Shown here piece by piece: positions 27,436 through 52,484 of a stretch of DNA of 64,000 nucleotides; the stretch's first letter is position 1, and every line of letters begins with the position of its first letter. A program made the translations under genes and the position numbers. The stretch is from NCBI RefSeq assembly GCF_000336955.1, contig NZ_AOLI01000004.1:1-64000 (forward strand), read 5' to 3'. The notes under the pieces were generated by a model, which was given only the letters and a program-made list of their open reading frames with translations, ran no database searches and was not told the origin of the DNA. The DNA is from Haloferax larsenii JCM 13917. Lineage in GTDB: Archaea > Halobacteriota > Halobacteria > Halobacteriales > Haloferacaceae.

Positions 27436-27441
27436 GATTTG

Positions 27442-31035: not shown

Positions 31036-32742
31036 TTAGCAGATGAGGAGGAACAGCCAGTAGGGAATGTAACAGAGGTTGACGCCATCCCGCTCCACAA
31101 CGAGTGAACCCGACTGCGTCACTTCCTTTGGCAGGCTATCCGCAATGATGAACCTGTAGGGTGCTTCGTAATCGAGGTCGAGAAGCTCCTCTCCGCCGGG
31201 TATTGGATGCTTCCCAACAGTCGGATCGAATTCAGCTGCAATCGTATCCGCATTTCCTGCGTGTGGATGATAGGAGAGAACGAACGGGACAACTACTCCA
31301 TCCTCATTGTGAAGGATGTAGTCGACAGTCCCCGACTCAGTCTCGAAGTATTCGACCTGCGGATCCTCGTCACCCGAGCCACCAACCCTCCATGCCAGTC
31401 TTTTTGCATGGTCAAATGCGACGGTTCGAGCTAGCTTGTACTCGAACTCGTGATTGAGCGATCCAGTCTTTTCGTATGTTTCGAATCCGTGGTGTTCCTG
31501 ACGCTGGGACAGAAGTACAACATGGCGTGGGTTCCGAAGGTAGAGTCGTGTACGGCGGTGGCGTTGAAGTGAGAAGTCGTGGGATTCCGAAACGGAGAGT
31601 CCGTCATCCAGCACGGACAGGTACGAATCGACAGTCCGCCGATCGACTTCCAGCTGGTCACTGATGTCGGTATATCGAAGCTCATTCCCAGCTTGGCTCG
31701 CAGCTAATGAAGCGATTCGATGGAGGTTCTCAGGTCGTTGAATCGATTCATACTCTGCGAGTTCCTTATAGAGATACAGGAGGAGATGAGATCGGATGAG
31801 TTCGTTTTTGACCGGGGTTTCCGTAGCGCGTAGGAAAATTCCACCTTTCTGCAGGTACTCACGAGCGGCCTCATACAGGCCATCTCGCTCAACGTCCGAG
31901 AAGGCTTCAAAGTAAAGCTGATTCAACGACGAGACCGCGTCGTCCAAGTTTTCCGATTCAGACAAATTACTCCGGACATCCTTTATCAGGGCCTCACCGT
32001 CCATACTCCTCGTTTGATGGGATTCCACACGAAGAGCAAAATCAGGGTCTGTCTCGAGTAACGCAGAGTCATCATATGCCCCTTGCTTGATGGTGTCGAT
32101 GAACTTCATCGGCAGCATCGCACGAGGATACTTGATTTTGGGCTCGCTCGAGGTCGAGATCCCACTCAAGTCGACCTGGGATTCTACAATGCCGGTCAGC
32201 AGTAGATAGGTATCATCATCTACGAGATCTAGAAGAGCGCTCTGTTCATCTTCATCGAGTCGCAGAGCCCCGATATCGTCGAGGATGATGTACTTACGAC
32301 CTCGACGTGGAGCGACGTGAGAACGGAAATAGTCGATAACGTTTTCGAGTTTTTCCACAGCACTGCTTGAAGGTTCGAGATGGTAGAGAGAATCCTCAAG
32401 AGGGACATAGAGGATCTGGCGTGGATCAACGGAGCCGACGATATCTAAATCACGATGGCTGGGAGAGAAGTCAACGGTGTCTGAATCAAGGATTGCAGCG
32501 ATGAATTGCTGAAGAAGCGTTGTTTTGCCGATTCCGGTCGGTCCGTAAATGGGATACACGAGACTCTCAGTACCGTCTTCTCTCTCGTCATCAATGGACT
32601 GCAGTACTTTGAGTAAGTCGGATCGTGGGTCTAGAGAAGCGGTTTGCTCTAAATCAGATAGTGAACCATTGCCCGTATCCCACCATTCGTTATGCCATTC
32701 AGCGTCTGCGATGAAATCAGAACCGTCAGATGGGTCCGTCAT
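31036..32742 (-). CDS. AAA ATPase with winged helix and C-terminal nuclease-like domain (DUF4143-like layout)
   Basis: 568 residues from the ATG at 32742, which is 27 nt from a good TATA box and therefore a leaderless start. Walker A is YGPTGIGKTTLL (about 66-77), Walker B KYIILDDIGAL (150-160), followed by LLLTGIVESQ. A winged helix (LRYTDISDQLEVDRRTVDSY) lies at about 370 and a C-terminal VDYILHNEDGVVVPF region resembles the degenerate PD-(D/E)XK fold of COG1373-type ATPases. It diverges from the AddB-like gene, with about 240 bases between them, and could be a regulator or an independent defence ATPase. Confidence 0.7.
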   Translation of the reverse strand: MTDPSDGSDFIADAEWHNEWWDTGNGSLSDLEQTASLDPRSDLLKVLQSIDDEREDGTESLVYPIYGPTGIGKTTLLQQFIAAILDSDTVDFSPSHRDLDIVGSVDPRQILYVPLEDSLYHLEPSSSAVEKLENVIDYFRSHVAPRRGRKYIILDDIGALRLDEDEQSALLDLVDDDTYLLLTGIVESQVDLSGISTSSEPKIKYPRAMLPMKFIDTIKQGAYDDSALLETDPDFALRVESHQTRSMDGEALIKDVRSNLSESENLDDAVSSLNQLYFEAFSDVERDGLYEAAREYLQKGGIFLRATETPVKNELIRSHLLLYLYKELAEYESIQRPENLHRIASLAASQAGNELRYTDISDQLEVDRRTVDSYLSVLDDGLSVSESHDFSLQRHRRTRLYLRNPRHVVLLSQRQEHHGFETYEKTGSLNHEFEYKLARTVAFDHAKRLAWRVGGSGDEDPQVEYFETESGTVDYILHNEDGVVVPFVLSYHPHAGNADTIAAEFDPTVGKHPIPGGEELLDLDYEAPYRFIIADSLPKEVTQSGSLVVERDGVNLCYIPYWLFLLIC

Positions 32743-38900: not shown

Positions 38901-39380
38901 GTCGCGAAGGAATGCATCGACCGGTATTTCGACCTCGATCTAAGCGGCTGGGAAATCGTCGATGCTGAACGAGAGTTCCAGCTAGAAGTGGATGGCCACG
39001 AACTCGTCGGGTTTATCGACGCCGTCTACCGGACCCCGGACGGTGAGTTGGTCGTCATCGACTACAAAGCCACCGAGCGTCACCGAGACATTGACGAGAA
39101 CAAGCAGCTGCCACTGTACCTGCTCGCCTGTCGTGACCTCTACGAGGAACCGATTACCAGCGCGGGATACGCCTATGTCGGCGATATCGGTCCAAAAGTC
39201 GAGGCCCGTTCGTTCGATGAGGGTGAACTGGATTCAGTACGAGCAGCGGTGTCGACGACGATGGATCGAATCAAGGAGACATCGTTCCGCGGGTACGAGA
39301 CTGGGGAGCACTGTCGGTGGTGCCAGCACAGTTCCCTTCCTTGTGGGGAAGAATGGCGTCAAGAAGACGGAGGCCGCTAG
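35946..39380 (+). CDS. AddA-like UvrD/RecB helicase-nuclease
   Basis: 1144 residues of superfamily 1A. Motifs in order: AGAGTGKTFTMV (I, about 36), ALTFTNNAADSM (Ia), FCDEFQDTDRLQFD (II, about 362), GDDDQAIYEWRGA (III), QNFRSRQ (IV), VMTIHKSKGLDFPVV (V, about 705) and HVGITRAEEILVL (VI). The C-terminal RecB-like nuclease has GFIDAVYRTPDGELVVIDYK at about 1020-1040 and a Cys cluster (HCRWCQHSSLPC) for an Fe-S site. It is therefore a complete AddA-type translocase. It forms one operon with the split AddB genes. Confidence 0.87.
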   Translation: MSDEVPDWLPTIEDDEDPKPQQRTIIESERYPMRVLAGAGTGKTFTMVRKIENLIDEHGVSPDRILALTFTNNAADSMREKLNAKLGPAGYDVDAYTYHSICNEILTDYAYDAGLDPDFEIATDAEKYVIVLDVLDEIDYRAVKPNVYGPDSYANGVATKLLSFIGSMKRSGISPTEIEEYLGSPEQVYELDAVPDRVEEIASDHLGGRSVSTVLDGIPDTRTDLVAERDALGDEGLEASIKDFLDRLVDLCDALEVAFEEHEAGERSLPEDAHKLPKYLLGGYSSAPSGIPNDLKLELTDYLRNALDECKTALDLNTGYEAYERELDRRNLLDFDGLVVKTVELLETDVGERLGDRWDYVFCDEFQDTDRLQFDLITSLVSEDRIFVVGDDDQAIYEWRGANVSNITDELDDVFGPDLEDEPLEQNFRSRQPILDLANDALERLADRRSTKTLTRVDEPDFDGDTVAVVEEADDEGDRAEQLVTVTRNLLSGDAEALNRAYDPGEIALLVRNNDHATPILERFDEAGIPYQVAGDLSTESIGVGTVVAYLKALARPEEDDVSWNRVLTMRYRLTDADLRRVNSHEDGAYAGICNQPLEVFDEPDRLQEVREHISRLLKLRETVSLSHLYRELKRLTNIDWYLSEQERRDLAQLDEIIDQYGNDAVQPPLTPQFIDSLQHYDSLLEESGSAPTSQPELADDAVNVMTIHKSKGLDFPVVLMPRLTADEWEPGSRTYDTFESALSEGPESVFDKDLVAQDANEARRILHVGITRAEEILVLHGSIEEDDTDDERPVHDAVESILPESVPWRPSNGHLPIWRDLQECLPSNHADWTASLASTVVGDVSGQVTYGSENLSASDGRDRVITFGNKLIEGSIEREPENRRFSIDALTGPMTPNPALQHSYTSLEAYEECPRQHFLDYVVNGFSDYRENGYGGDGISQRIVGLLFHDTAEIAAKEQAAERAEWYAICERLAGQRRATDELPVAKECIDRYFDLDLSGWEIVDAEREFQLEVDGHELVGFIDAVYRTPDGELVVIDYKATERHRDIDENKQLPLYLLACRDLYEEPITSAGYAYVGDIGPKVEARSFDEGELDSVRAAVSTTMDRIKETSFRGYETGEHCRWCQHSSLPCGEEWRQEDGGR

Positions 39381-40504
39381 TAGGTCATCGGGAAGGCCGG
39401 TTGACCCGTCGACCGCTTATCGTCAGCTATTGCGAACAAGGGATGGATATCTGCGAGCGTATAGGTTTCGAGACACGCGTACAGGTTTGAGGCTCGGGTA
39501 TCCTCTCCTGCTGCGCTAGCCTCTAGCCACGCCTCACCGAAGTATGGAACGTCGCTGTTGAATACGGTGGGATCCCCAATATCATCAGACGGAGGGTCGC
39601 GGTCTTCCTCTCGCATGATCTCCCACTGACTCTCGCGCCACGTCTGTGGTTCAAGCTCAGTTTCGTAATCCGTCCAGAGCGTCTTCGGTGCGGGCGATCC
39701 AACATATTCAGCCATATCCTCGAGTGAACCCTCCCCCAGGACCCGATTCTTTGCCGACGCGAGGTCGGCATGATAGTAGGACTCGAGTGCTGTACGTACA
39801 CTCTCTGCTCGTCCAGGGTCACCGATTTCCGCAGCGGCCCGTTCCGCACGACCCACCAAGACTGGGAGGTCGAACCACGCGCCCCCGAAGGTGATGAGAA
39901 CATCGACTTCCCTCGCATCGAGCCAGTTCACAACCGCCTCAATAGCGTCAAGTTCTGCAGAAGCCGTCTCGTCATCACGGAAGAGGACCTCAGCCTCAAT
40001 CTCCTCGCTCGGACTGCCTCGGTATCCAACGCCGGTACAGAGTAGTTCCTGATGGTCTGGATTCGGTGGTTCGAGTTCTCGCTCGGAAACAGTCGTAATC
40101 GTCTCGATGTCGAGTGCTGCAATGGCATCGGCTGCACCGAGTCGACGAACGGTGTCAGTCGTGTCTGAAGGGGACATCTCTGGACGGTCAGATAGCTGGC
40201 GGACCTGCCGATCCCACTTTGCTTTGATACCGATAGTTCCCTGGTACACGTCGGGGTTGACGTCGTCGAATTCGTACCAGGAGCCTTCTTCGAAGGAGTA
40301 GTCGACGAGATCGCAGTCGTCATCGTCGAAAACTGTGAGCTTCACGTGCGTCCCCAGCAAATCTGAACAGTGGACAAGTTGGGCCCACCAGTCGTGGTCT
40401 GGAGTTCGTTCGACCTTGTCGATCCGCAACGGCACTGTAAGCCCGTACTTACCATCTCGTTCCGCTGCGACGAGATTGCTCGCGGTCAGGGTGTCTGTTG
40501 CCAT
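39377..40504 (-). CDS. OB-fold plus DnaQ/PolB-type 3'-5' exonuclease
   Basis: 375 residues. The N-terminal 105 residues read like an OB fold (LTVPLRIDKVERTPDHDWWA, GTHVKLTVFDDDD, WYEFDDVNPDVYQG), suitable for single-stranded DNA. The C-terminal part is an RNase H-like exonuclease: ALDIETITT (D132, E134), LITFGGAWFDLPVL and YTLADIHPLF as the third motif. It runs opposite to the AddAB-like genes, overlapping addA by 4 nt at the 3' end. A TATA-like GTTATACC lies about 26 nt before the ATG. Confidence 0.7.
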   Translation of the reverse strand: MATDTLTASNLVAAERDGKYGLTVPLRIDKVERTPDHDWWAQLVHCSDLLGTHVKLTVFDDDDCDLVDYSFEEGSWYEFDDVNPDVYQGTIGIKAKWDRQVRQLSDRPEMSPSDTTDTVRRLGAADAIAALDIETITTVSERELEPPNPDHQELLCTGVGYRGSPSEEIEAEVLFRDDETASAELDAIEAVVNWLDAREVDVLITFGGAWFDLPVLVGRAERAAAEIGDPGRAESVRTALESYYHADLASAKNRVLGEGSLEDMAEYVGSPAPKTLWTDYETELEPQTWRESQWEIMREEDRDPPSDDIGDPTVFNSDVPYFGEAWLEASAAGEDTRASNLYACLETYTLADIHPLFAIADDKRSTGQPAFPMTY

Positions 40505-40627
40505 AATAGTCCCACCGAACCAGAGGTATAACTACTTTTTGATGGTGGTATTTTCATACTACCGCATCTGGAATGCTTTTATTCGTAACGCTTATTTCGT
40601 GACAGAGTATTTGTGGCCTCAAAGAGA

Positions 40628-40783
40628 ATGACATCTGAACACACGAGTCGGCCTTCATCCGACAAACGAGCTGAGATTACAGCTGGATGGAGCGAACCTA
40701 CAGATTGTCGTACGGAAGGTGGCCATACCGAATCTCGGTCGGATTACACCCAAATGATGAAGAGCCAATTTCGAATCCAATGA
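40628..40783 (+). CDS. Possible 51-residue leader protein upstream of the PLD-ATPase gene
   Basis: Starts MTSEHTSRPSSDKRAEITAG and ends with a TGA overlapping the ATG at 40780 (ATGA). Hydrophilic and probably disordered. If real, it couples translation to the PLD gene; if not, the PLD gene starts earlier, at 40687, in a different frame. The ATGA overlap and haloarchaeal amino-acid bias favour it moderately. Confidence 0.35.
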   Translation: MTSEHTSRPSSDKRAEITAGWSEPTDCRTEGGHTESRSDYTQMMKSQFRIQ

Positions 40784-42927
40784 AGTTCGACGTTCCTCTC
40801 GATACCGGAACCAGTGATCACAGCCACGTCGAGATTTTCAAGAGCTGGCGGTCATTCTCCGACGTATTCGATGGCGCAAAACGAATGCGTGTCGTCACCT
40901 ACTGTGACTCCCCCGAGTTTATTCTGGATCTCTTCGAAGACCTCGACGACTTGGAGTCCTTAGAGGTGGTCGTCGGGGACGTCTCCGACTACCGCGAGCG
41001 CCTCATCGACAAGCCCGACCTCGCAGATCGGCTTGAACAGCTCAGGAGTGAAGGCAAACTCGTAATCTACCTTTGTGAGAACAAGGAAGTTCACTCCAAG
41101 CTGTATCTCGTCGAGTACAACGACTCAGTCTTAGAAGAAGCGGATGAGAACGGCGATGAGGATCAGATGACCCTTGGCGGAGAGGCTACGGTTGAAACCG
41201 AACCCGAGGACACCGATGACGGTACACCGGCGAAGGTCATTGTTGGCTCCCCGAATCTCTCTCGAAATGCATGGTCGAATCAGACGAACATGGGCGTCGT
41301 CTACGATACGAAGACGGACAGTGAGCTCTACGAGGAGTTTGAGGAGCTTTATCGCGATCACCGGGACTCGTACAACAGTGGTGGACCCTTCTTGGAAGAT
41401 CTCTCCGAACAACTCGAACTCTCGGACGATGACCGAGAAGAGGTAATCAAACTGTACACCGAAGGGCGTGTGGGTACACAAGACGAACTAGGGGAGATTC
41501 ACGGTCGTCTCGCAGACCATATCGATGCAGAAGTTGAGGCGGTGGATCTCGCGCTCGATGGAGGCACGGATACCGTCGCAGAGCAGGAGACAGAGGAGCC
41601 AGAGCTCGATACAGAAGACGAATCTGTCGAGAATGATCCAGATTTGGAAGATGCGCCACAGGACCGCATCACTTTGTCTCTACGCGGGTACGAAGAATCG
41701 ACAGTTGATACGTTGTCGCAGATGACTGACTTCGATGCGACCGTGTCGAATGATACGTTGACGACGACCCCAGATGCGTTCCAGCGGTATGCACAACAGG
41801 TGTTCGATGTCCCGACAATGCACCTGAACGAGTCCAAAGACGAGCTGAAGTTCCATTACGACGGCACGGTCTATCGTGTCACGCAGCCACCGTCTAACCC
41901 AGAGCGTGTCGACGAAGCGCTGGCCGAGATTGAGGACTACTTTGCGACAGTGGACAACTATGGGAATTCCAACAACCAAACTGCAGTCAAGGCCCACATG
42001 TATGAAGCACTACTCTGGTTCTTCTGGGCGCCGTTCGCCAATCGACAGGCTCAGTTCTATCGTGAGCACGGGATTAACCTCGACAAGGCTCTTCCGTACC
42101 TCTACGTCTTTGGCGAGTCAAACGGAGGAAAAGGGACATTCTGTCGATTTGCCCTATCACTGATTAGTGGAAACCGTGTCGAAGCACCCGTCGACGCAGA
42201 CGAAATTGGGAAGCGAAAAGTCCGGAATCTGCGTTCAGCACACACGTCGTTCCCTGTCGTCGTCGACGACATCACCAAGCAGAAGGTGAACTCGCTGGAT
42301 ACGCTTCGAAACTATTGGAGTGGATGGACCGGCGAAACGGCCTATCCGATGTTCGCCTTCATCTCGAACGATAAACGCCCTGGAGAGTGGTTCCGTAACC
42401 GTGCTAAGATCCTCCGATTCGACGTGAATTTCATGACCTCACATCAGGGGGAAGCTGAAGTAAACCGTCTAATCGACACGGAGAACCCGATTTTCCAGTG
42501 GTTTGGGTACGAGTATCTCAACCGCGATCTCGAGCTGGGAACTGACTCTGACGCACTTCGGGAAGTGAGGGCGGCCATGCAGGACCTCTATGAGCATGCC
42601 GACCGTCCACTGCCAGACTACTTCCCAACCGAACCGGCTGAGCAAGCTTATGACACTGGCAGAGAGCGCTGGCGAAACCTCATCGACCGAGAGGACGTCG
42701 AAATTGCTAAAGACAGTGATACTCTACAGGTGACCTTCCCGGAGTCGATGAACTTCGAACTCCACGAGTACAAGCGCGACCCTCCGATGACGGTTCGAAT
42801 TGAAAAGCGGGGCCTCGATTTGATCATTAAGACGCCGGACGAGTTCTTCGACTGGCTTGGGGAGACGACTAACGGCGATCCGCGAGAAGGATTCCTCTCA
42901 CGCGCTCGTAGCCTTCTGAAGCGGTAA
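40780..42927 (+). CDS. Phospholipase D-like nuclease fused to an SF3-like ATPase
   Basis: 715 residues from ATG 40780 (an in-frame start at 40687 would add 31). The N-terminal 190 residues are a PLDc_2-type domain: VHSKLYLVEYND (H-x-K, about 105) and VGSPNLSRNAWSNQTNMGVV (about 155-175). A long acidic linker (235-300) leads to a P-loop domain with YVFGESNGGKGTFCRFAL (about 444), VVVDDITK as Walker B and FISNDKRPGEWFRNRAKILR, which resembles SF3/D5 helicases of viruses and plasmids. PLD and ATPase modules in one chain suggest a motor-driven nuclease. It lies 240 bases before the ubiquitin-like operon. Confidence 0.72.
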   Translation: MKFDVPLDTGTSDHSHVEIFKSWRSFSDVFDGAKRMRVVTYCDSPEFILDLFEDLDDLESLEVVVGDVSDYRERLIDKPDLADRLEQLRSEGKLVIYLCENKEVHSKLYLVEYNDSVLEEADENGDEDQMTLGGEATVETEPEDTDDGTPAKVIVGSPNLSRNAWSNQTNMGVVYDTKTDSELYEEFEELYRDHRDSYNSGGPFLEDLSEQLELSDDDREEVIKLYTEGRVGTQDELGEIHGRLADHIDAEVEAVDLALDGGTDTVAEQETEEPELDTEDESVENDPDLEDAPQDRITLSLRGYEESTVDTLSQMTDFDATVSNDTLTTTPDAFQRYAQQVFDVPTMHLNESKDELKFHYDGTVYRVTQPPSNPERVDEALAEIEDYFATVDNYGNSNNQTAVKAHMYEALLWFFWAPFANRQAQFYREHGINLDKALPYLYVFGESNGGKGTFCRFALSLISGNRVEAPVDADEIGKRKVRNLRSAHTSFPVVVDDITKQKVNSLDTLRNYWSGWTGETAYPMFAFISNDKRPGEWFRNRAKILRFDVNFMTSHQGEAEVNRLIDTENPIFQWFGYEYLNRDLELGTDSDALREVRAAMQDLYEHADRPLPDYFPTEPAEQAYDTGRERWRNLIDREDVEIAKDSDTLQVTFPESMNFELHEYKRDPPMTVRIEKRGLDLIIKTPDEFFDWLGETTNGDPREGFLSRARSLLKR

Positions 42928-43121
42928 CTAGGAAACTTGCGTAGATCGGCGGACGCGATGTGACCTTCTCGTGGGACTCAACACTGCTGAATACACTCTT
43001 TAGATTGTCGTTTGGCCCTCGGGCTGGCGGATTTCGTACACTGGGGAGTCAAATCCGATTGATCTACACCATAGTATCTCCCAACGGAGAGGTACAATCC
43101 CCAATTTAGCGTGTTTCGAAT

Positions 43122-43143
43122 GTTACTAGTGGCAAGATATAAG
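43122..43143 (+). promoter_or_regulatory. Promoter of the ubiquitin-like operon with GTTACTAGT element
   Basis: GTTACTAGT at 43122-43130 is followed by a TATA box (TATAAG, ending 43143) and then 24 bases to the ATG at 43168. The promoter at 48339-48360 has the same element and exactly the same spacing. Confidence 0.65.
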
Positions 43144-43167
43144 TCATCACAGAATAGATGTAGTGGT

Positions 43168-43440
43168 ATGGGAGCTGAAGACCAAGGGGAGGGGAACCGG
43201 ACGTACCCGATCCACATCGGGAATACGACGATTCGGTTCGACGACCCCGTTCAGACCGCAGAGACGATTATGATCGACGCAGGAACGGACGAGGATAAAA
43301 CCGACCAGAAGTGGCTCTACGCTCTGGAAGGAAAGAACAAGCCCAAAGACACTCAGTTCGAGGACTCCGACACCGTCGACCTCAGTGACGAGAATCGGAA
43401 GTTCTTCCGAATTGTCCCGAAGGGGAGCGGTCGGTCGTGA
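43168..43440 (+). CDS. Ubiquitin-like protein (multiubiquitin family, single domain)
   Basis: 90 residues from the leaderless ATG at 43168. After a short acidic tail it has RTYPIHIGNTTIRFDDPVQT, KWLYALEGKNKPKD and DTVDLSDENRKFFRIVPKG, the pattern of the Multi_ubiq beta-grasp domain found in bacterial ubiquitin-like operons. The C-terminus is KGSGRS, so no diglycine is exposed and none is present to be exposed by simple trimming. It overlaps the E2-like gene by 4 nt (GTGA). It is the presumed modifier of this system. Confidence 0.75.
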   Translation: MGAEDQGEGNRTYPIHIGNTTIRFDDPVQTAETIMIDAGTDEDKTDQKWLYALEGKNKPKDTQFEDSDTVDLSDENRKFFRIVPKGSGRS

Positions 43441-43928
43441 GTGAAGGCGAAACGTCGACGGGCGAGATGGATGGACCTTCCCCACCAGCCAGGCTCGCAG
43501 AAGAGAATCTGAAACCTTCGTTTCAGAAGGCGCTCTCTGCCCTCCGAGAAAGACACACACCAGCAATCCCGGTCGGAAGACACGACGGGGAAATCGCAGT
43601 CTGGCTTGGTGAGTTCGATTTCACTGTGTATCAACACCCCTACACACCAGAGCAAGCGGAGGTGTACATTTTCCTCCCTGAGAATTTCGTCAACAGCGAT
43701 CCTCACTGGGTTGTGACTGTCCCGCCAGTCGAACGCGCCGATCGGGAGGGGTGGGAAGACAACAATCCTGACCGTCGTGACCAAGACAAGTATCTTCAGA
43801 ACGACTTGGGAGTCGATCAGGGAATCACCTTCAGCCTCCGGTGGTCACATTTGAATTTTAAGCCAGAAAAGCCGGAGCACGCTGTGCGTGCAATCGAAGT
43901 GATCGACGCAGGCTTCGAAACGGGATAG
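43437..43928 (+). CDS. E2-like protein (prokaryotic E2 family E type) without cysteine
   Basis: 163 residues, GTG start. The order VWLGEFDFTVYQHPY, EVYIFLPENFVNSDPHWVVT and ITFSLRWSHLNFKPEKPEHA follows the prokaryotic family-E E2-like proteins that partner Multi_ubiq, ThiF and JAB genes. The entire chain has no cysteine, so it cannot form a classical thioester. It may be a scaffold like UEV proteins or use another nucleophile. It ends one base before the JAB-E1 gene. Confidence 0.65.
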   Translation: MSEGETSTGEMDGPSPPARLAEENLKPSFQKALSALRERHTPAIPVGRHDGEIAVWLGEFDFTVYQHPYTPEQAEVYIFLPENFVNSDPHWVVTVPPVERADREGWEDNNPDRRDQDKYLQNDLGVDQGITFSLRWSHLNFKPEKPEHAVRAIEVIDAGFETG

Positions 43929-43929
43929 C

Positions 43930-45696
43930 ATGACAGGAGCGTACCGTGCCCGTGCAGTTGGTGAGAGGTCGCCACCCAGTCAGGCGGCAGAATTCCAGTT
44001 TGCGCTCAGTGAAGGGACGTGGCTGACACTTGATGGATACCTGAAGCCGCCCGAAGGTCACCACCTACATGGTTTACCCGAGCGAGGAGCAATCGGAATC
44101 ATCACCCCGAGCACGGGAGACAGAAGGACGACGTACCTGTTACAGAAGGTCGTTGATCCGAGCCCGGGAGACGTCTACTTCGACGGCCAGCTAAAGTTCC
44201 ACCCAGACTATACGCTGCGGGCAATCAACGAGGCTGCAGAAGTGCCAGGAGCAGGCCTGATCTTCATCCACACCCATCCGGGAAGCGGTGCGACTCCGTC
44301 AGGCCCCGACAAAATAGCTGACAAAGAAGAACTGTACGACATCGGTCTGAACCTCGGCTCAGAAGTCCCGCTCGCAGCGGGTATCGTGACAGATCGTCCT
44401 AACCCCGAGACTGGCCAACGCGAATGGTCGGTTCGGGCGTATGAGTTCGTCTACCCGAACTCATCACAGGCTGAAGGGGCAAGCCGTACCGGAGAGGAAA
44501 CGGGTGAGTTCACGCACGCAACGGCGGTCCGAGTTGTAGGTGAACGAATCAAAAAGCTCCCAACGATCAGGGATGCTGCTGGGCCGGCTGGTACGGGCGG
44601 GGCGATCGACTCAGAAGCCCAGGATTCAACGGTAGAACTCTGGGGGGAACGCGGTCAACAGACGCTTGCTGGCTTCCGCGTTGGAGTCGTAGGCCTCGGA
44701 GGCGTCGGTTCGCTCCTCGCAGAACAATTAGCGCGTCTCGGCGTTGAAGAAACGGTCTTCGTCGACTTCGACTACCTCGAACGTGCGAACCTCAATCGGT
44801 CTTACGGCGCTGCAGCTGATGATGTCGGTAAGCCGAAAGTCGAGGTGGCAAAGAAAGTCGCGGAGCGGTCGGCGACGAACCCGCGATTCACCGCACAGGC
44901 AGAATACGGAAGCGTAGTCGAGGAAGACGAGGAGCACGCTTGCCTTCCACAACTGCTCGACTGCGATGTCATCATCAACGCTGCTGACACGCACTGGGTT
45001 CGATTCCTCCTCGACGAGGTCTCACATGCCCACCTCATTCCCGTTCTCGACGGGGGTACCGAGCTCATCCCGAATGACGAAAAAGATGAACTCGATATCG
45101 GGTCTAGATCACTCATCTCCGCTACGGGACCAGGACATCCATGTCTTGAGTGCACTGGCCACTGGTTCCACGGAGATGAGGAAGAGGGCGTGATTCACGA
45201 CAGAGAGCCAGATGTCGCTCGTGGAGCGGGATACGTCCAAGGCCTGGATGGGGGTGAAGCACTGGCAGATGACGTCGATGGTGATGAACGGGCGCCTTCC
45301 GTGGCCACGAACAACGGTCTCGTGGCATCACTCCTGGCCCTTCGTTTCCAAGCGCTTGCAGTCGGCATCACCTCACAAGCCCTCGTTGGCAGTCAAGAGT
45401 ACGATGCTCTCTTTGGTACTCTTGACTGGCAAGAAGATAGCAATAATGAAAAACGGATCTCGTGCAAGGGGGACTGCGACCGGAAAGAAGCGCTCGCACG
45501 GGGCGACCACTACGAGTTGCCGACTGAGCCCGATCCGACGTTCCGGAAGGTCCTCGAAGAACACAGAGAGGGCGATCAGCAACGAGAGACCGCCGAACTG
45601 GATGCTGAAGAGCAAACAGAGAGGGGAGTCTTTCAGCGCATTACTGCGTATGTCGCTCGTCTCGTGAACCGAAGCTCGAAGGAACCGTCTCAGTAG
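43930..45696 (+). CDS. JAB peptidase fused to ThiF/E1-like adenylyltransferase
   Basis: 588 residues. The N-terminal 180 form a JAB/JAMM metalloprotease: E51 in LPERGAIGII, then IHTHPGSGATPSGPD with H114, H116 and D127. Residues about 245-480 are a ThiF/E1 domain: VVGLGGVGS (ATP loop 253-261), FVDFDYLERANLNRS with R290, and DVIINAADTHWVR. CLEC (405-408) and CKGDC (512-516) look like the structural zinc site. No free cysteine is present in the usual catalytic loop between them; the only others are C338 and C345. The JAB part could trim the modifier or remove it from targets. Confidence 0.82.
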   Translation: MTGAYRARAVGERSPPSQAAEFQFALSEGTWLTLDGYLKPPEGHHLHGLPERGAIGIITPSTGDRRTTYLLQKVVDPSPGDVYFDGQLKFHPDYTLRAINEAAEVPGAGLIFIHTHPGSGATPSGPDKIADKEELYDIGLNLGSEVPLAAGIVTDRPNPETGQREWSVRAYEFVYPNSSQAEGASRTGEETGEFTHATAVRVVGERIKKLPTIRDAAGPAGTGGAIDSEAQDSTVELWGERGQQTLAGFRVGVVGLGGVGSLLAEQLARLGVEETVFVDFDYLERANLNRSYGAAADDVGKPKVEVAKKVAERSATNPRFTAQAEYGSVVEEDEEHACLPQLLDCDVIINAADTHWVRFLLDEVSHAHLIPVLDGGTELIPNDEKDELDIGSRSLISATGPGHPCLECTGHWFHGDEEEGVIHDREPDVARGAGYVQGLDGGEALADDVDGDERAPSVATNNGLVASLLALRFQALAVGITSQALVGSQEYDALFGTLDWQEDSNNEKRISCKGDCDRKEALARGDHYELPTEPDPTFRKVLEEHREGDQQRETAELDAEEQTERGVFQRITAYVARLVNRSSKEPSQ

Positions 45697-45729
45697 AGCG
45701 AAAAATAGACAATCACAACACACGATCAC

Positions 45730-48207
45730 GTGAATCGAGAATCGTCCGTGGAGAAGACAATCGAGTGGCTAAGAAACCGACCCTACTACGAGGGGCAAAT
45801 TACCCATCAAGAGCGAACGCCAGGGTCCTCGGCCGAAACCTCACCAATCGACCTTGATCACCGGTTAGCGAGGGCACTCTCTCGTCGCGATATCAACGAA
45901 CTCTTCCAACATCAAGCGGACGCAATCGAAGTCGTCCGAGACGGAGACAATGTCGTACTCGCCACTCCGACGGCTAGCGGCAAGAGTCTCGCCTATACGG
46001 TTCCAGCACTCGAACGCGCTCTTGATCACCACGGTAAGACGCTCTATATTGCGCCGATGAACGCTCTGATTAACGATCAAAGGGACACCATTTCTAAGAT
46101 TGCTGCAGATCTTGAGGGGAGTCAGAGCGTCGACGTTGCGACATATACAGGACTCCTGACCGACCCCGAGAAACGCGAAGTTTGGGCCCGCCAACCAGAT
46201 GTTCTCTTGACCACCCCAGATATGATCCATAAAAGTTTGCTCCCCTTCTCTAAATCGCCAAAACACTGGAAGTGGCTCTTCCAACAGCTCGAAACGGTCG
46301 TCGTCGACGAAGTACACGAGTTTCGAGGGATATTCGGAAGTCACGTTTCACTAATTTTCCGTCGTCTCTCGCGTTTGGCAGAGTACTACGATTCTACTCC
46401 CCAGTACATCTGCTGCTCTGCAACTATCGGGAATCCAATCGAACATGCAGCAGCAGTCACTGGACAACAACCTAGCCAGTTCTCACTAATCAACGACGAT
46501 GCCAGTTCGACAGGCCCTCGTCAGTGGGTATTCTGGAATCCACCGTTAAGAGAAGCCGAGGAACTTGAGGCAGAATTGGAGACAGCCGACGGACCATCTT
46601 CAAATGCAGAAGGCAGCTCTGAAGCGAGTCCACCACCATCGAGCCCGGTTGAAGTACCCCACCACAACGAGATTATAGGCGGAGAGCGCCGTTCCCATCA
46701 CCCAGAGACGGTGCGGTTGTTCTGCGATTTTGTTCAACGAGGGTATCAGACGCTCGTCTTCACACGGGCTAGGCAGGGAACCGAGCAGTACGCCAACTGG
46801 TGCGATAGTAAGCTTCGAAAGCGTGGTGAACACGAGCTCGCGGACCAGGTTACTGCATACCACTCAGCACTCCAGGACGAGCGTCGGACCACCATCGAGG
46901 CAGGGCTCCGCGATGGATCCATTCGAGGTGTATGGAGTACGAATGCACTCGAGCTCGGCATCGACGTCGGCAGTCTTGACGTCGTCCTTCTCGACGGGCA
47001 CCCAGGAACGAGCATGAGCACATTCCAGCGCGCGGGGCGGGCAGGACGTGGAGAAAATCCGAGCCTCGTTGTCCTCGTAGCAAGCCCGAATCCGTTAGAC
47101 CAGTACTGTATGGCGAATCCGGATCTCCTGTTCGACGGCGACCCTGAACAAGCAGCAGTCAACCCCGCAAACACCCAAATACTAGATGACCACGTCTGCT
47201 GTGCGGCTCAAGAGCTGTTCCTGCGCACCAGTGACGACACCTACTTTGGCGCTGAATATCCGGCGACTGTTGCGTCTCTTGATGACGCGGACCAACTAGA
47301 GCGATTTAGCTCTCGAACCGGTCCCCGGTGGAAGTACATCGGAGAGGACAGCCCGCAACACACGATGGACATCCGCTCTATCGATGATCGGCAAATCGAA
47401 CTTTATGATCGACTGCGTGATCGGACACTTACCTCGCTTCCGTTTGGCGATGCGCTTCGTGATGCACACCCCGGTGCAATCTATCATCATCAAAAGGAGT
47501 CGTATCGTGTGACGGAGGCAGAATTCGATGCTGACCGTGTACTCTTGAAGTCAGTGAACACGATGGGGTATACCCGTCCACTCACTGAGAAACGAATTAC
47601 TATTGAAGAGGAGCTCAAGACGGGCGGTCTCGCCTCACAGGAGACTGTCTCTGTCGGATTTGCAGATCTCACGGTTGCAGAAGAGGTGACGGGATACATG
47701 CTCTATGACCACCCATCAGATGAGGACGGCGTCGAGCGGGCTTTCGACGAGCCGCTTCCTGAGCGGACAATTCGCACCCGTGGGCTCTATTTCACAATTC
47801 CACCGCAGATCGAGCAGGACATCAAAGCTGCGAGTGAGGAAGAGGACGGATTTCTCGCGAGTATTCACGCTCTGGAGCACGCACTGATCTCTTTGTTCCC
47901 ACTCGAGATACTCTGTGCTCGTCGCGACGTCGGTGGGCTCTCGACCGAGTATCATCCCCACACTGGATGGAGCACGATTTTCGTCCACGATGGTCATCCG
48001 GGTGGGGTAGGGCTTACTCGAGAAGCGTTCGGGAAGCTGGAGACCATGCTTGAGCGCACGTTGGAAATGCTCTCTAGCTGTCCCTGTGAAGACGGGTGTC
48101 CATCGTGCGTTCACTCCCCACAGTGTGGGAATGCGAATCGGACGCTAAACAAGCAGCTCGCAATCCGGCTTCTGAAGCAACTGTTAGAGGTTCCTGTTCA
48201 GCCGTAG
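45730..48207 (+). CDS. DUF1998 superfamily 2 helicase, MrfA/YprA-like (first copy)
   Basis: 825 residues from GTG 45730. Motifs: LATPTASGKSLAYTVPALE (I, about 78), VVVDEVHEFRGIFGSH (DEVH box, about 192), CCSATIGNP (III), LVFTRARQGTEQY (IV) and FQRAGRAGRGENP (VI). The C-terminal DUF1998 region has CPCEDGCPSCVHSPQCGN, a four-cysteine zinc site. Bacillus MrfA, the best-known relative, repairs mitomycin-damaged DNA with the exonuclease MrfB; related helicases also belong to DISARM. It follows the JAB-E1 gene by 33 bases and is probably in the same operon. Confidence 0.82.
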   Translation: MNRESSVEKTIEWLRNRPYYEGQITHQERTPGSSAETSPIDLDHRLARALSRRDINELFQHQADAIEVVRDGDNVVLATPTASGKSLAYTVPALERALDHHGKTLYIAPMNALINDQRDTISKIAADLEGSQSVDVATYTGLLTDPEKREVWARQPDVLLTTPDMIHKSLLPFSKSPKHWKWLFQQLETVVVDEVHEFRGIFGSHVSLIFRRLSRLAEYYDSTPQYICCSATIGNPIEHAAAVTGQQPSQFSLINDDASSTGPRQWVFWNPPLREAEELEAELETADGPSSNAEGSSEASPPPSSPVEVPHHNEIIGGERRSHHPETVRLFCDFVQRGYQTLVFTRARQGTEQYANWCDSKLRKRGEHELADQVTAYHSALQDERRTTIEAGLRDGSIRGVWSTNALELGIDVGSLDVVLLDGHPGTSMSTFQRAGRAGRGENPSLVVLVASPNPLDQYCMANPDLLFDGDPEQAAVNPANTQILDDHVCCAAQELFLRTSDDTYFGAEYPATVASLDDADQLERFSSRTGPRWKYIGEDSPQHTMDIRSIDDRQIELYDRLRDRTLTSLPFGDALRDAHPGAIYHHQKESYRVTEAEFDADRVLLKSVNTMGYTRPLTEKRITIEEELKTGGLASQETVSVGFADLTVAEEVTGYMLYDHPSDEDGVERAFDEPLPERTIRTRGLYFTIPPQIEQDIKAASEEEDGFLASIHALEHALISLFPLEILCARRDVGGLSTEYHPHTGWSTIFVHDGHPGGVGLTREAFGKLETMLERTLEMLSSCPCEDGCPSCVHSPQCGNANRTLNKQLAIRLLKQLLEVPVQP

Positions 48208-48338
48208 GGAAGACGATAGTCAGGCATTTCAGTGCTCTATCGACCCACTGGCCGGTGAGAGTACAGAGATTGACAGCTACCCAGACTCAGAAGAGCAACT
48301 ATTGAATTCGCCTAAATCTCAGATAGAAACATCGCAGA

Positions 48339-48360
48339 GTTACTAGTCAGAAAGTATAAG
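48339..48360 (+). promoter_or_regulatory. Promoter of the MrfB/MrfA-like operon with GTTACTAGT element
   Basis: GTTACTAGT (48339-48347), then TATAAG ending at 48360, then 24 bases to the ATG at 48385. Element, TATA box and spacing are the same as at 43122-43168. Confidence 0.65.
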
Positions 48361-48384
48361 CCAGAGGGTTACGATAGTGAGTGT

Positions 48385-48453
48385 ATGACCAACACGCGAA
48401 ACGAGGGACAACCTGCTGATAGCCAACCGGGGCAGGGAACAACTACCCACTGA
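48385..48453 (+). CDS. 22-residue leader peptide ORF before the MrfB-like gene
   Basis: Begins at the predicted transcription start and encodes MTNTRNEGQPADSQPGQGTT plus two residues, ending 3 bases before the exonuclease ATG. As a leaderless first ORF it would load ribosomes for the next gene; a role in regulation or as a tiny protein is possible. Confidence 0.35.
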   Translation: MTNTRNEGQPADSQPGQGTTTH

Positions 48454-48456
48454 GAC

Positions 48457-49914
48457 ATGGCGGGCGACCTTGGAGTACGTCTGCTTGCTCTCCGGTGTGA
48501 TGCGCTAGTCGACGCTACGACGACCGCCATCGAAGATCTCGTCGATTACTTCGATGCGGATCTCATCTACATTGTCGAAGAAAAGTTGGATATGCGAACC
48601 GTAAGCACTGTCGAGCGTACCGCCTCGTGCCCGGTAATTTACACTCGGGGAAGCGCGGTTCACACTGAGACGGTGGACGGGATTACCGTGTCCATCGTCA
48701 GGTCACTCGACTTCATCGGTGGGGCCTCTACCGCCAGCGGGCAAGGGATTCCAGACGGCGTCGACTACGTCATCTGTGATGAGATACAGACGAGCGCCGA
48801 CTCGGTCAATTTAGATGTCTCGCTCGATGGCCTCGAACACCTCGCTCGCTTCCAACACCGAACCGACCGAGAAGCGACGTTCCTCACCGGAGCCATGGAG
48901 GCAAGTTACGATTTCGTGTGGAAGGCCGACGTCGACGACGAGAGCGTTCGCCTTCCCGTCCGCGGGCTTGCTCCAACCCGTCGGCAAGGGGCACCCGAAC
49001 TCGCCTGCCTTTCGCTTGATTCGGGTGGCCGCATCGCTTTGTCCACGACACCGGCGGATAAATTCGGCCTCCGAGCGCTCTCGGGTGTGGGCAAGGGAAC
49101 CGCCCCGAAGCTCTCTCGGAATGGGTATGAGACGCGTGACGACGTCGCAGCCGCGACGGAACGCGATCTTCGTGAGGTTCGAGGTATCGGCGAGTCGAAA
49201 GCGCAGAGCATCCGCCAGAGCGCCCACGCGTTGTCCGAAGGATGCGTGATCCGTCTCACAGACGAAACTGTCCCCGCAGCAGACTACAGTCCGCTATTCA
49301 TTGATATCGAGACTGACGGCCTCAACCCGAGTATCATCTGGCTCATCGGGGTCTACGACCCTGAAACAGACGAGTACGTGGACTTCATCGATACGGAACC
49401 GTCACGAGACAACCCAGGGAAAGCCACTCGAGAGTTTGTTGCGTGGCTAGCCAGCGAGTACGATCGCACGTCCCTCATCGCGTGGAACGGCCACAACTTC
49501 GACTTCAAACACCTCAGCCGATTCATCCGAGGACACGCACCGGAGTACGCAGACTACTGGTCGGACTCCGTGTTCGAGTACGACCTGTTCGACTGGGCCG
49601 TGCGAAAAGACAACGCCATCCTCCCCGGTCGGACGAACCGAGTCGAAGACGTCGCTGAAGCGCTCGGACATGGTCGCGACTCGGCTGCTGCCGCCGTGGA
49701 TGGGAAATCACTGGCGAAGACCATCCAGCGGCTTCTCGTATCTCCAGAGCGCGCTCGAGACGTAGACTGGGAGACCGCTCGGGCATACTGTGAGGCAGAC
49801 GTCCGTGAGCTGGCTGCAGTCTACGAATCGATTGCTGAGGCGACACCTGGCCACAAGCGTGCCAGCGTTCCTGCTGATGAAAACACCACGCAGACCGGAC
49901 TCATGGACTTCTAA
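48457..49914 (+). CDS. MrfB/YprB-like RNase H-fold exonuclease with HhH motifs
   Basis: 485 residues. Residues about 205-265 hold helix-hairpin-helix motifs (LRALSGVGKGTAPKL, LREVRGIGESKAQSIRQ). The C-terminal domain has LFIDIETDGLNPSIIWLIGV (D and E at about 283-285), IAWNGHNFDFKHL (about 341) and YCEADVRELAAVY, the DEDD exonuclease pattern of YprB/MrfB. The N-terminal 190 residues are unassigned; LIYIVEEKLDMRTVS and YVICDEIQ suggest an alpha/beta fold. Two bases separate it from a second DUF1998 helicase, the same pairing as in mrfAB. Confidence 0.8.
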   Translation: MAGDLGVRLLALRCDALVDATTTAIEDLVDYFDADLIYIVEEKLDMRTVSTVERTASCPVIYTRGSAVHTETVDGITVSIVRSLDFIGGASTASGQGIPDGVDYVICDEIQTSADSVNLDVSLDGLEHLARFQHRTDREATFLTGAMEASYDFVWKADVDDESVRLPVRGLAPTRRQGAPELACLSLDSGGRIALSTTPADKFGLRALSGVGKGTAPKLSRNGYETRDDVAAATERDLREVRGIGESKAQSIRQSAHALSEGCVIRLTDETVPAADYSPLFIDIETDGLNPSIIWLIGVYDPETDEYVDFIDTEPSRDNPGKATREFVAWLASEYDRTSLIAWNGHNFDFKHLSRFIRGHAPEYADYWSDSVFEYDLFDWAVRKDNAILPGRTNRVEDVAEALGHGRDSAAAAVDGKSLAKTIQRLLVSPERARDVDWETARAYCEADVRELAAVYESIAEATPGHKRASVPADENTTQTGLMDF

Positions 49915-49916
49915 CA

Positions 49917-52484
49917 ATGCACGACGACCACGATACCGACCACAGCCAGACAGACCTCACGACCAATCCGGAGGACAACACCAACAACGGTGACATCGAT
50001 ATCGAGACGGACATCCTCCAACTCACCGGCGAGGAGCTCGAGAGTACCTACCCGAATAACCGCTACTTCGGGCAGGTTCACGAAAACTTCGAGATTCCCG
50101 CTCGTGAGGAACAGACTGTTCCAGCAGGGGACGTGCTTCCGCCCAAGATCGCTCGAAACCTCGAATTCGACCCGTGGAGCCACCAAGCAGAGGCTCTCCA
50201 GGTACTCGACCGCGGTGACAACGTGTGTGTGGCAACTAGTACATCCTCGGGGAAGACGCTAGTCTATGGTCTTCACATCGCTCGTCAATACCTTGAGGAT
50301 CCGGAGACGCGGTCGCTTATCGTCTATCCGACGAAGGCACTCAGTCGCGACCAGGAGCAAGAACTCAACGAGTTCCTTCGTAACACGCTTGGACTGGATA
50401 TCAGTGTCGGCGTCTACGACGGTGACACGAAGAGCGAGGAAAAGTCTCGCATCCGCGATGAGTGCAACGTCGTAATCACGAACTTCGTCGGGCTGAATCA
50501 GTATCTGGAGAGTCACCACCTGTGGGCAGACTTCCACTCGAACTGCTCGCTAGTCGTTATCGACGAAGCCCACATGTGGACTGGCCTCGGCGGGATGCAC
50601 GTCGCTTGGATCCTCCGACGCGCCCAACGGATCATCGATTACTACGGCGGCGATCCGCAGTACGTTCTCACGACGGCGACGATCGGCAATCCCACAGAAC
50701 ACGCTCTCGCACTCACTGGTGAGCCCGCGGCAGTCGTCGACGAAGACGGATCACCGCGAGGCATCCGTCACCTCGTGTTCTGGGACCCCCCGATGAGTGG
50801 TGACGACGGTCTCACTGACGACATCGACTCTCCGGCGCTTTCGAAGCGTCCGGCGACGGTCGAAGCCCCAGAAGTGTGGGCGCATATGTGCCAGAAGAAC
50901 GTCCAGTCGCTCCTGTTCTGTGACTCGCGGAAGCTCACCGAACTGTCTGTCAACCGTGCGAAACGGTTCATCAGCGACCCGGAGAACCGATATCAGGGAA
51001 GACCGGACCTCGCATCCTACCATGCTGGACACGGTAAACAGTCCCGTCGGGGGACAGAGTACCAGCTCAAGGAAGGACACCTCGACGGCGTCTCGACGAC
51101 GAGTGCCCTGGAAGTCGGTATCAATATCGGCGGCGTCGATGGGACCGTCCTCATGGGCTATCCGGGGTCGCGCCAGTCGTTCTGGCAACGGATCGGTCGA
51201 TCGGGCAGAGGAACGCGAGATGCGCTCTCAGTGTTCGTTCCGAGCCACTCCACGCTCGACCAGTACATTCTCCAGCACCCGGAGTACGTCCTCGAAGAAG
51301 ACCACGAGAGCGCCGTCGTTGACCTCGACAACAATCCCGTGTACCTCCAGCAACTCAACTGCGCCGCGCAGGAACTCCCCCTCTCACGCGATGATGCAGA
51401 GGATTTCGGAGGCGAGGAACGACTGGAACGTGCCGTCGAGTACGGCCGACGTAAGGGCGACCTCGAAGGATCACTCGACAGCGGCGTGATGTACGCCCAT
51501 CGCGACCGCCCACAGGATGCGATCAGCCTGTACTCCTCCGGCGGAAACACCTTCGACGTCCGACTAGCTGGCAATGGATCGGTTGACCACCAACCGATCG
51601 GCCGTGACCGGGCCTACAGAGACTACCACGAAGGTGCAACTGTTCTACACCAAGGCGAGCAGTATCAGGTCGTCGAACTCCGAGAGGACATCCCACAGCC
51701 GTACATCTCGCTCGAAAAAGCGAATGTGAGCTATTACACACAGTCTCAAGGCCAGGTTAACATCTACGACACGGTCGTCGAGGACTCGCGCGAGGTCGGG
51801 CCGTTCACGCTCAACTGGGGGTATGGAACGGTATCTGTCCACTATAGCACGTACCTCAAGCGAGAAATCGGAACTGGGGACGTACTTGAGCTGGGCAATG
51901 AAACTGGTGTGCCTCCGTTAGAGATGCGAACCCAGCTGTGTTGGGCCGAGACTCCCAACGACATAGAGCGCGCGATGCTCAACAAGCACTCGGAGTACCA
52001 CAATCCTGAATGCATCAACCTCCCACCGCGGCTGCACGGGTACCTCGGTGGGATTCACGCCGTCGAGCACGCGATGATTGCCGTCTCGCCACTCGAGCTG
52101 AAAGTCGATGGCGGTGACATCGGTGGCCTAGCAACGAATCGGCTTCCTGGAAATCCCGAGAAGAGTGGTTGGTTCATCTACGACGGTATCGAGGGCGGTC
52201 TCGGGTTTTCGCGGTCGATCTACGAACATTTCGAGGATGTTGCCCAGCGGGCCCACGACCTCATCGTTGACTGCTCATGCGGTCGCGATGAGGGGTGCCC
52301 TGCCTGTACGATGGACGACCGTTGTGGAAACGACAACCGTCCGTTGTATTCTCCCGCAGCGACGGACGTTCTGCAGCACTTATTGGGAGAGTTGGACGAC
52401 GACGATCTTTCAGAGAATCTCCCTGATACAGAAAGTGAGGTGTCTCCCGTGGATGAACAACGACCACCCGCGTCGATTTCGTAA
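49917..52484 (+). CDS. DUF1998 superfamily 2 helicase, MrfA/YprA-like (second copy)
   Basis: 855 residues. Motifs: VATSTSSGKTLVYGLHIA (I, about 104), LVVIDEAHMWTGLGG (DEAH, about 216), TTATIGNP (III), LLFCDSRKLTELSV (IV), FWQRIGRSGRGTRD (VI) and a C-terminal zinc site CSCGRDEGCPACTMDDRC (about 785). The acidic N-terminal 60 residues are extra. It is clearly related to the 45730 helicase but diverged (DEAH rather than DEVH box). Directly coupled to the MrfB-like exonuclease, it is the better mrfA counterpart; the first copy may be specialised for the ubiquitin-like system. Confidence 0.84.
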   Translation: MHDDHDTDHSQTDLTTNPEDNTNNGDIDIETDILQLTGEELESTYPNNRYFGQVHENFEIPAREEQTVPAGDVLPPKIARNLEFDPWSHQAEALQVLDRGDNVCVATSTSSGKTLVYGLHIARQYLEDPETRSLIVYPTKALSRDQEQELNEFLRNTLGLDISVGVYDGDTKSEEKSRIRDECNVVITNFVGLNQYLESHHLWADFHSNCSLVVIDEAHMWTGLGGMHVAWILRRAQRIIDYYGGDPQYVLTTATIGNPTEHALALTGEPAAVVDEDGSPRGIRHLVFWDPPMSGDDGLTDDIDSPALSKRPATVEAPEVWAHMCQKNVQSLLFCDSRKLTELSVNRAKRFISDPENRYQGRPDLASYHAGHGKQSRRGTEYQLKEGHLDGVSTTSALEVGINIGGVDGTVLMGYPGSRQSFWQRIGRSGRGTRDALSVFVPSHSTLDQYILQHPEYVLEEDHESAVVDLDNNPVYLQQLNCAAQELPLSRDDAEDFGGEERLERAVEYGRRKGDLEGSLDSGVMYAHRDRPQDAISLYSSGGNTFDVRLAGNGSVDHQPIGRDRAYRDYHEGATVLHQGEQYQVVELREDIPQPYISLEKANVSYYTQSQGQVNIYDTVVEDSREVGPFTLNWGYGTVSVHYSTYLKREIGTGDVLELGNETGVPPLEMRTQLCWAETPNDIERAMLNKHSEYHNPECINLPPRLHGYLGGIHAVEHAMIAVSPLELKVDGGDIGGLATNRLPGNPEKSGWFIYDGIEGGLGFSRSIYEHFEDVAQRAHDLIVDCSCGRDEGCPACTMDDRCGNDNRPLYSPAATDVLQHLLGELDDDDLSENLPDTESEVSPVDEQRPPASIS

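What the first reader, a model, noticed from the sequence alone, without database searches (positions are those of the whole stretch)
43122..48385. Twin promoters with an identical GTTACTAGT element and spacing
GTTACTAGT at 43122 and at 48339 is in both cases followed 7 bases later by TATAAG and, 24 bases after that, by the first ATG of a leaderless operon; element-to-ATG distance is 46 in both. The rest of the promoter sequence is dissimilar, so this is not simply recent duplication. It implies that the ubiquitin-like operon and the MrfB/MrfA-like operon are controlled by the same regulator, supporting one functional system.
Basis: seen in the sequence. Interest (0 to 1): 0.72.

Follow-up and report, generated by a model that had tools for sequence, protein, structure and literature searches.

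The report
Shared promoter element of plasmid defence module
The two look-alike promoters are real, and they are two of at least five kinds of operon on salt-loving archaeal plasmids, including Argonaute defence genes, that carry one conserved switch-like DNA element just upstream of the basal promoter.

Summary
GTTACTAGT-N7-TATAAG-N24-ATG occurs at 43122 and 48339 and nowhere else in the 3.70 Mb genome, even with two mismatches. The 9-mer itself is not what is conserved: relatives read GTYRCTAGT or similar. The constant part is CTAGT, fixed directly upstream of BRE/TATA: 13 of 14 P2 and 9 of 9 P1 promoters keep it, while flanking DNA has diverged. A third, decayed copy (P0, 40579) lies upstream of the PLD gene, an AgaP homologue. 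The mrfB promoter keeps the element on plasmids with no ubiquitin-like operon, so it belongs to a larger plasmid module. A matrix trained only on P0/P1/P2 found the element 44 bp upstream of pAgo (Piwi) genes on four plasmids and 42 bp upstream of divergent MBL-fold genes, with 0 such hits in 881,616 control positions. One of these is the experimentally studied ago-agaP operon of Natrinema pellirubrum. Best reading: a module-specific upstream regulatory site shared by operon heads. The regulator is unknown; a co-occurring AAA/DUF4143 ATPase is a weak candidate. The second 'first ATG' opens a 22-codon mini-ORF, not mrfB.

The parts
43102..43130 (+). P1 element: extended site, core CTAGT at 43126-43130, upstream of the ubl operon
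   Evidence: core 5/5 invariant in 9 loci against 2/30 positions at -60..-30
43131..43143 (+). P1 basal promoter: BRE-like GGCAAGA and TATAAG
   Evidence: BRE CGAAA and TATA TTWT for haloarchaea from passages of PMC4983044
43168..43440 (+). small ubiquitin-like candidate (90 aa), leaderless start; no Pfam match
43437..43928 (+). E2-like candidate by position (163 aa), no cysteine at all; no Pfam match
43930..45696 (+). JAB-E1 (ThiF) fusion protein
   Evidence: ThiF 111 bits; Prok-JAB 21.4 bits, under its cut-off of 25
45730..48207 (+). YprA/MrfA-like helicase 1 (DEAD, MZB, WHD_HRQ1)
48319..48347 (+). P2 element: core CTAGT at 48343-48347, upstream of mrfB-helicase 2
   Evidence: core 5/5 and TATAAG 6/6 invariant in 13 loci against 0/30 upstream; lost in a 14th (L082)
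48355..48360 (+). P2 TATA box TATAAG
48385..48453 (+). 22-codon mini-ORF at the predicted P2 transcript start, in frame with mrfB, ended by TGA
   Evidence: 22 codons in 12 of 13 loci; protein-level constraint not shown
48457..49914 (+). MrfB-like exonuclease (RNase_H_2, HHH)
49917..52484 (+). YprA/MrfA-like helicase 2
40555..40583 (+). P0 element, decayed in this genome (TTATT at 40579-40583 where 6 of 9 loci read CTAGT)
40780..42927 (+). PLD-family protein, AgaP homologue; start set by homology (ORF caller begins at 40687)
   Evidence: 82% identity to the PLD protein next to Piwi in Halomontanus; 80% to the Natrinema pellirubrum one
39377..40504 (-). divergent hypothetical gene whose upstream region holds P0; weak DNA_pol_B_exo1 match under cut-off
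31036..32742 (-). AAA/DUF4143 ATPase that co-occurs with the module; weak candidate regulator

Best explanation
The element is a module-specific upstream regulatory site, about 24 bp ending in CTAGT, placed directly upstream of BRE and TATA. It heads the operons of a plasmid-borne DNA-processing and defence module: agaP/PLD (P0), ubl-E2-JAB/E1-helicase 1 (P1), mrfB-helicase 2 (P2), and in relatives ago-agaP and an MBL-fold operon. A DNA-binding factor that travels with, or recognises, the module would bind there, next to TFB and TBP, and switch these operons together. Shown: the position, the selective constraint, the specificity, and its prediction of new module promoters. Inferred: that a protein binds it, that one factor serves all copies, and whether it activates or represses.
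For: P2 core and TATA are invariant in 13 loci, while 0 of 30 positions at -60..-30 are (pairwise identity 0.46); mrfB third positions are 29% invariant in 12 loci. P1 core is invariant in 9 loci, against 2 of 30 upstream. Unique in the own genome with up to 2 mismatches. In 392 genomes: 9 of 9 matches of GTYRCTAGT-N7-TATAAG are P1/P2; 7 of 7 matches of the P1-type pattern are P1 or MBL promoters, control 0; 4 of 6 matches of a looser P0/P1 pattern are module promoters, the other two lie over coding sequence. The matrix scan of 14 loci gave 32 hits of at least 30 bits, 31 of them training sites and the other 44 bp upstream of a Piwi gene; next best 8.7. On 7 further Piwi plasmids, 5 of the 6 hits above 13 lie 42-44 bp upstream of a Piwi or MBL start codon. 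Control loci: 0 hits of at least 13 in 881,616 positions. mrfB homologues at 50-62% identity elsewhere have no CTAG next to their TATA box. The Halorarius ubl operon (E1 37% identical) also starts behind this element.
Against: P2's 24-base extension is only weakly like that of P0/P1 (p 0.002-0.26), so one factor for all copies rests mainly on CTAGT and its fixed place. P0 has lost CTAGT in 3 of 9 loci, the window included. P2 lost it in L082 although mrfB there is 92% identical. 3 of 7 Piwi plasmids (L094, L095, L098) show no hit, and L096's hit is 255 bp upstream of Piwi. P0/P1 similarity can come from shared descent. No binding, expression or transcript-start data exist here.
Confidence: 0.7

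Rival explanations
1. Promoter shuffling: P0, P1, Piwi and MBL promoters are copies of one ancestral promoter carried along when cassettes were inserted, with no dedicated regulator; the element is only a strong basal promoter variant (TFB/TBP preference).
For: P0 and P1 predict each other's 24-base extension, and the ubl cassette sits between agaP and helicase 1, which adjoin in L046 and L047. The ago-agaP operon with 300 bp of upstream DNA is transcribed in the heterologous host Haloarcula hispanica (PMC11442185, passages read).
Against: P2 shares the core and its place but hardly the extension. The constrained bases reach about 20 bp upstream of the BRE, beyond the basal elements, and CTAGT is far more conserved than its flanks.
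Confidence: 0.2
2. CTAG methylation switch: the core is the target of the haloarchaeal orphan m4C methyltransferase (Zim), and its methylation state at these promoters gates the module, for example after plasmid transfer.
For: CTAG is kept in 9/9 P1 and 13/14 P2 sites although the tetramer is under-represented in the window (71 seen, 106 expected). The own genome has an orphan 375-aa N4/N6 methyltransferase ORF with an SPPY motif on contig C33. Conservation of a CTAG orphan methylase in Halobacteria is from passages of PMC6471742 and PMC5867850.
Against: Three P0 sites and three Piwi/MBL sites read TTAGT, CTAAT, TTATT or CTATC; the positions around CTAG are constrained too; the methyltransferase's target was not shown (name no CTAG enzyme).
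Confidence: 0.06
3. Chance: two unrelated promoters that happen to share nine bases and standard leaderless spacing.
For: The spacing is generic, and there are many promoter pairs to choose from in the window (inference).
Against: Conserved in 9 and 13 loci, lineage-specific, and predictive of other promoters.
Confidence: 0.02

Closest known systems
Upstream activator sequence of the haloarchaeal bop gene (Bat regulon)
   Same: A regulatory site upstream of a haloarchaeal promoter that recurs at co-regulated genes (PMC1447603 passages; PMC3184054 passages).
   Different: The bop consensus, recalled as containing ACTAG, could not be checked (paper not held). No Bat-type regulator was linked to this module here.
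APAP system: long-A pAgo with PLD protein AgaP, haloarchaea (PMC11442185)
   Same: The window's PLD protein is 80% identical to the N. pellirubrum AgaP, and the N. pellirubrum operon carries this element 44 bp upstream of Piwi. The tested construct held 300 bp of upstream DNA, which would span the element.
   Different: The window module has no pAgo beside agaP; instead it has ubl-E2-E1/JAB and two YprA helicases. The text read describes no promoter element (section 6 and search passages, not the whole text).
MrfAB/YprA helicases (PMC12458937)
   Same: DEAD, MZB and WHD_HRQ1 domains, and an MrfB-like exonuclease next to helicase 2.
   Different: Here two YprA paralogues sit on plasmids with ubl and PLD genes; 'ubiquitin' occurs 0 times in that paper's main text.
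Prokaryotic E1-E2-JAB ubiquitin-like operons (PMC1779556, search listing only)
   Same: ThiF and JAB-like domains in one protein behind two small genes.
   Different: The E2-position protein has no cysteine, and neither small protein matches Pfam.

Membership tests
Haloarchaeal upstream activator site promoter | Conserved site directly upstream of BRE and TATA | tested here: met
   CTAGT lies at -42..-38 from the ATG in P1 and P2
Haloarchaeal upstream activator site promoter | Shared by several co-regulated operons | tested here: inconclusive
   site sharing met; co-expression not testable with these tools
Haloarchaeal upstream activator site promoter | Bound by a known regulator | not testable with these tools
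   no binding data
APAP (pAgo-PLD) system | AgaP-type PLD protein | tested here: met
   82% and 80% identity to PLD proteins beside Piwi
APAP (pAgo-PLD) system | Long pAgo gene in the same operon | tested here: not met
   no pAgo among the ORFs read next to agaP in the window, and no ago remnant between P0 and agaP; present in L044, L092, L093, L097
E1-E2-JAB ubiquitin-like conjugation operon | E1 (ThiF) domain | tested here: met
   111 bits
E1-E2-JAB ubiquitin-like conjugation operon | JAB/JAMM domain | tested here: inconclusive
   21.4 bits, cut-off 25; HTH-x7-S-x2-D motif visible in the sequence, motif recalled
E1-E2-JAB ubiquitin-like conjugation operon | E2 with catalytic cysteine | tested here: not met
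   0 cysteines in 163 aa
E1-E2-JAB ubiquitin-like conjugation operon | beta-grasp ubiquitin-like protein | tested here: inconclusive
   no Pfam match; structure job not finished
MrfAB | Helicase with MZB domain beside an exonuclease | tested here: met

The most novel reading that the evidence does not exclude
One plasmid-encoded factor, possibly the AAA/DUF4143 ATPase found in 13 of 13 genomes with the module and 0 of 12 control genomes, gates a whole immune array through this element: Argonaute-PLD, ubiquitin-like conjugation, and two YprA helicases with an exonuclease. Different plasmids would swap effector cassettes behind the same switch, so the promoter element defines the immune system better than any of its genes.
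Probability: 0.3. Interest if true: 0.8.

Novelty: new member of a known kind. Interest (0 to 1): 0.6.

Why it matters
If right, a short promoter element lists the parts of a modular archaeal plasmid defence system, and ties a ubiquitin-like operon and YprA/MrfAB helicases to the experimentally tested Argonaute-PLD immunity. It would explain how the AgaP nuclease, toxic on its own, and the other effectors are kept in step, and it makes the co-regulation directly testable in a genetic model (Haloarcula hispanica) already used for the APAP operon.

Tried and rejected
Tried without result: viral contigs for mrfB (none) and for the P1-type pattern (4 contigs; matrix scores 6.9-12.8, no gene of note at the expected distance, taken as chance). 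Searched for an ago remnant between P0 and agaP: nothing significant. The structure of the ubl candidate was requested and had not finished, so its fold is untested. The bop UAS consensus could not be read.

Considered and rejected: a ubl-specific regulator (P2 keeps the element without the ubl operon); an inverted repeat around CTAG as the general feature (seen by eye in some P1 and P0 sites, not in P2); a coding role for the mini-ORF as proven (23 synonymous against 35 non-synonymous codon differences in 11 loci: not the pattern of a constrained protein, although its length is kept); the AAA ATPase as an established regulator (3 of 4 further AAA plasmids, L116, L117, L119, show no site of 13 bits or more). 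Literature: searches showed no title or abstract describing this element; full texts were read only in passages, apart from section 6 of PMC11442185.
Full report
WHAT WAS CLAIMED AND FOUND. GTTACTAGT lies at 43122 and 48339, each followed by N7-TATAAG and, 24 bases on, by an ATG. Chance in the window: 2 matches against 0.09 expected. In the 3.70 Mb genome the 9-mer occurs 6 times, reversed control 2; in none of the other four (L005-L008) is it followed by the TATA arrangement. With N7-TATAAG only the two sites exist, also with up to two mismatches in 15 letters, control 1.

WHAT THE PROMOTERS DRIVE. P1 precedes a 90-aa protein, a 163-aa protein, a JAB-ThiF (E1-like) fusion and a YprA/MrfA-like helicase. 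P2 precedes an MrfB-like exonuclease and a second YprA/MrfA-like helicase. The two small proteins match no Pfam family, and the E2-position protein has no cysteine, so 'ubiquitin-like operon' rests on the E1/JAB protein. The ATG at 48385 opens a 22-codon ORF whose TGA is followed one codon on by the mrfB ATG, in the same frame.

RELATIVES. A search of 293 genomes of the order with the E1-JAB protein found three further loci at 95-96% identity and eight matches at 40-46% in seven genomes. The plasmid collection added more: the complete gene set (PLD, ubl operon, both helicases, mrfB) in Haloarcula litorea, Haloplanus and, in the unannotated record, Natribaculum longum; Salinirubellus without helicase 1; Halorarius with a different ubl operon (E1 37%) and no agaP; Natronosalvus and Natrarchaeobaculum without any ubl operon. 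Genome contigs gave Halosimplex (mrfB-helicase 2 only, within the 21 kb held) and Natronolimnohabitans (no ubl operon). The loci of the diverged E1-JAB proteins (L024-L031) show no match to the window's helicases and no such promoter element.

CONSERVATION. The window's 9-mer is found in no other locus: relatives read GTTGCTAGT, GTCGCTAGT, GTAACTAGT, GGCACTAGT, GTGACTAGT and others. CTAGT is kept in 9 of 9 P1 and 13 of 14 P2 promoters; the loss is L082 (mrfB 92% identical, on a different contig from the AAA gene). TATAAG is exact in 13 of 13 P2 and 6 of 9 P1 sites. In P2, core 5/5 and TATA 6/6 are invariant, against 0/30 at -60..-30 with pairwise identity 0.46; in P1, 5/5 against 2/30; mrfB third positions are 29% invariant. 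mrfB homologues of 50-62% identity: none of the 20 upstream stretches shown (L062-L081) has CTAG next to a TATA box; two of them, L080 and L081, start inside the gene and say nothing.

A THIRD COPY. P0 lies between a divergent gene and the PLD gene. Of 9 loci, 6 read CTAGT, L043 TTAGT, L046 CTAAT, and the window TTATT. P0 and P1 share the 24 bases upstream of the core (each predicts the other; p<=0.0001 for 9 of 9 P1 and 8 of 9 P0 sites, the ninth p=0.0034), whereas P2's extension is only weakly similar (p 0.002-0.26). In Halorarius, which lacks agaP, the P0-like promoter drives its own ubl operon; I counted that site with P1. P0 is therefore probably ancestral to the backbone, and P1 came in with or near the ubl cassette (inference).

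SPECIFICITY AND PREDICTION. In 392 genomes, GTYRCTAGT-N7-TATAAG gives 9 matches in 4 genomes, all P1 or P2; two of the three in G084 lie at the two ends of one contig and are probably the same site. The reversed control gives 5 matches in 5 genomes. A P0/P1 pattern gives 6 matches, 4 of the module and 2 over coding sequence, control 0. A P1-type pattern gives 7 matches: 5 P1 and 2 in front of an MBL-fold gene, control 0. A weight matrix from 31 P0/P1/P2 sites, run over the 14 loci, gives 32 hits of at least 30 bits; the one not used in training lies 44 bp upstream of the Salinirubellus Piwi gene that heads Piwi-hydrolase-agaP; the next hit is 8.7. Seven further Piwi plasmids were then taken from a tblastn list of 14 records and scanned: six hits exceed 13, five of them 42-44 bp upstream of a Piwi start (L092, L093, L097) or of a divergent MBL-fold start (L092, L093); the sixth, in L096, is 255 bp upstream of Piwi; L094, L095 and L098 have none. 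In 19 control loci, 881,616 positions, none reaches 13; three of those 19 are the Piwi plasmids without a hit, and three are AAA plasmids. I chose the control loci from those already fetched.

LINK TO A TESTED SYSTEM. L093 is plasmid pNATPE02 of Natrinema pellirubrum, the strain whose ago-agaP operon was shown to be co-transcribed, to restrict plasmids and a virus in Haloarcula hispanica, and to be expressed there with 300 bp of upstream DNA; AgaP without pAgo was toxic (PMC11442185, section 6 and passages). The element sits 44 bp upstream of that Piwi start as given by homology; the record's own annotation begins later. The window's PLD protein is 80-82% identical to these proteins but has no pAgo beside it.

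CANDIDATE REGULATOR. An AAA/DUF4143 ATPase (31036-32742, -) has 56-66% orthologues next to the Piwi loci. It occurs in 13 of 13 genomes with the module and in 0 of 12 controls that I chose because they carry only a diverged mrfB or E1-JAB. Against it: three AAA-bearing plasmids show no site, and the ago promoter works in H. hispanica, where I did not search for the ATPase beyond the plasmid list, which shows no H. hispanica record. It may equally be another component of the module.

MECHANISM. Haloarchaeal BRE and TATA are given as CGAAA and TTWT (PMC4983044 passages), so the AA eight and nine bases after the C of CTAGT and the TATA box are taken as basal. The specific part is T-19 to CTAGT, from about -61 to -38 relative to the ATG, where an activator would meet TFB, or a repressor would block it. 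Sign and factor remain unknown.

VERDICT. Co-regulation is likely but not shown.

Noticed in passing
window 48385-48453 and the same place in 12 other loci: A 22-codon mini-ORF at the predicted P2 transcript start, in frame with mrfB and ending just before it, keeps its length in 12 of 13 loci (even in L082 with another sequence and TAA); it is gone in L047. Coupling of translation is one possibility.
   Followed up: partly
window 43437-43928: The protein at the E2 position has no cysteine, nor have the Halorarius and L025 counterparts; the small ubl candidate does not end in Gly-Gly.
   Followed up: partly
L096 9746: A 25.8-bit element lies 255 bp upstream of Piwi, with no annotated gene at the usual distance.
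   Followed up: no
L022 5940-6815: In the G074 plasmid only the C-terminal part of agaP was matched (residues 455-746) and no P0 site was found.
   Followed up: no
window 24799-30931 (-): A DUF1156 methyltransferase and a DUF499 ATPase flank a protein with a sub-threshold PglZ match: probably another defence cluster on the same plasmid.
   Followed up: no
L104 (reverse strand reading) 1253-1540: Beside the MBL promoter of the N. pellirubrum plasmid lies a 95-aa ORF resembling the start of the window gene 39377-40504, as if that divergent gene had been replaced (by eye).
   Followed up: no
G000 contig C33 75711-76439 (-), locus L089: A single orphan N4/N6 DNA methyltransferase ORF with an SPPY motif, a possible CTAG methylase; target not shown.
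   Followed up: partly
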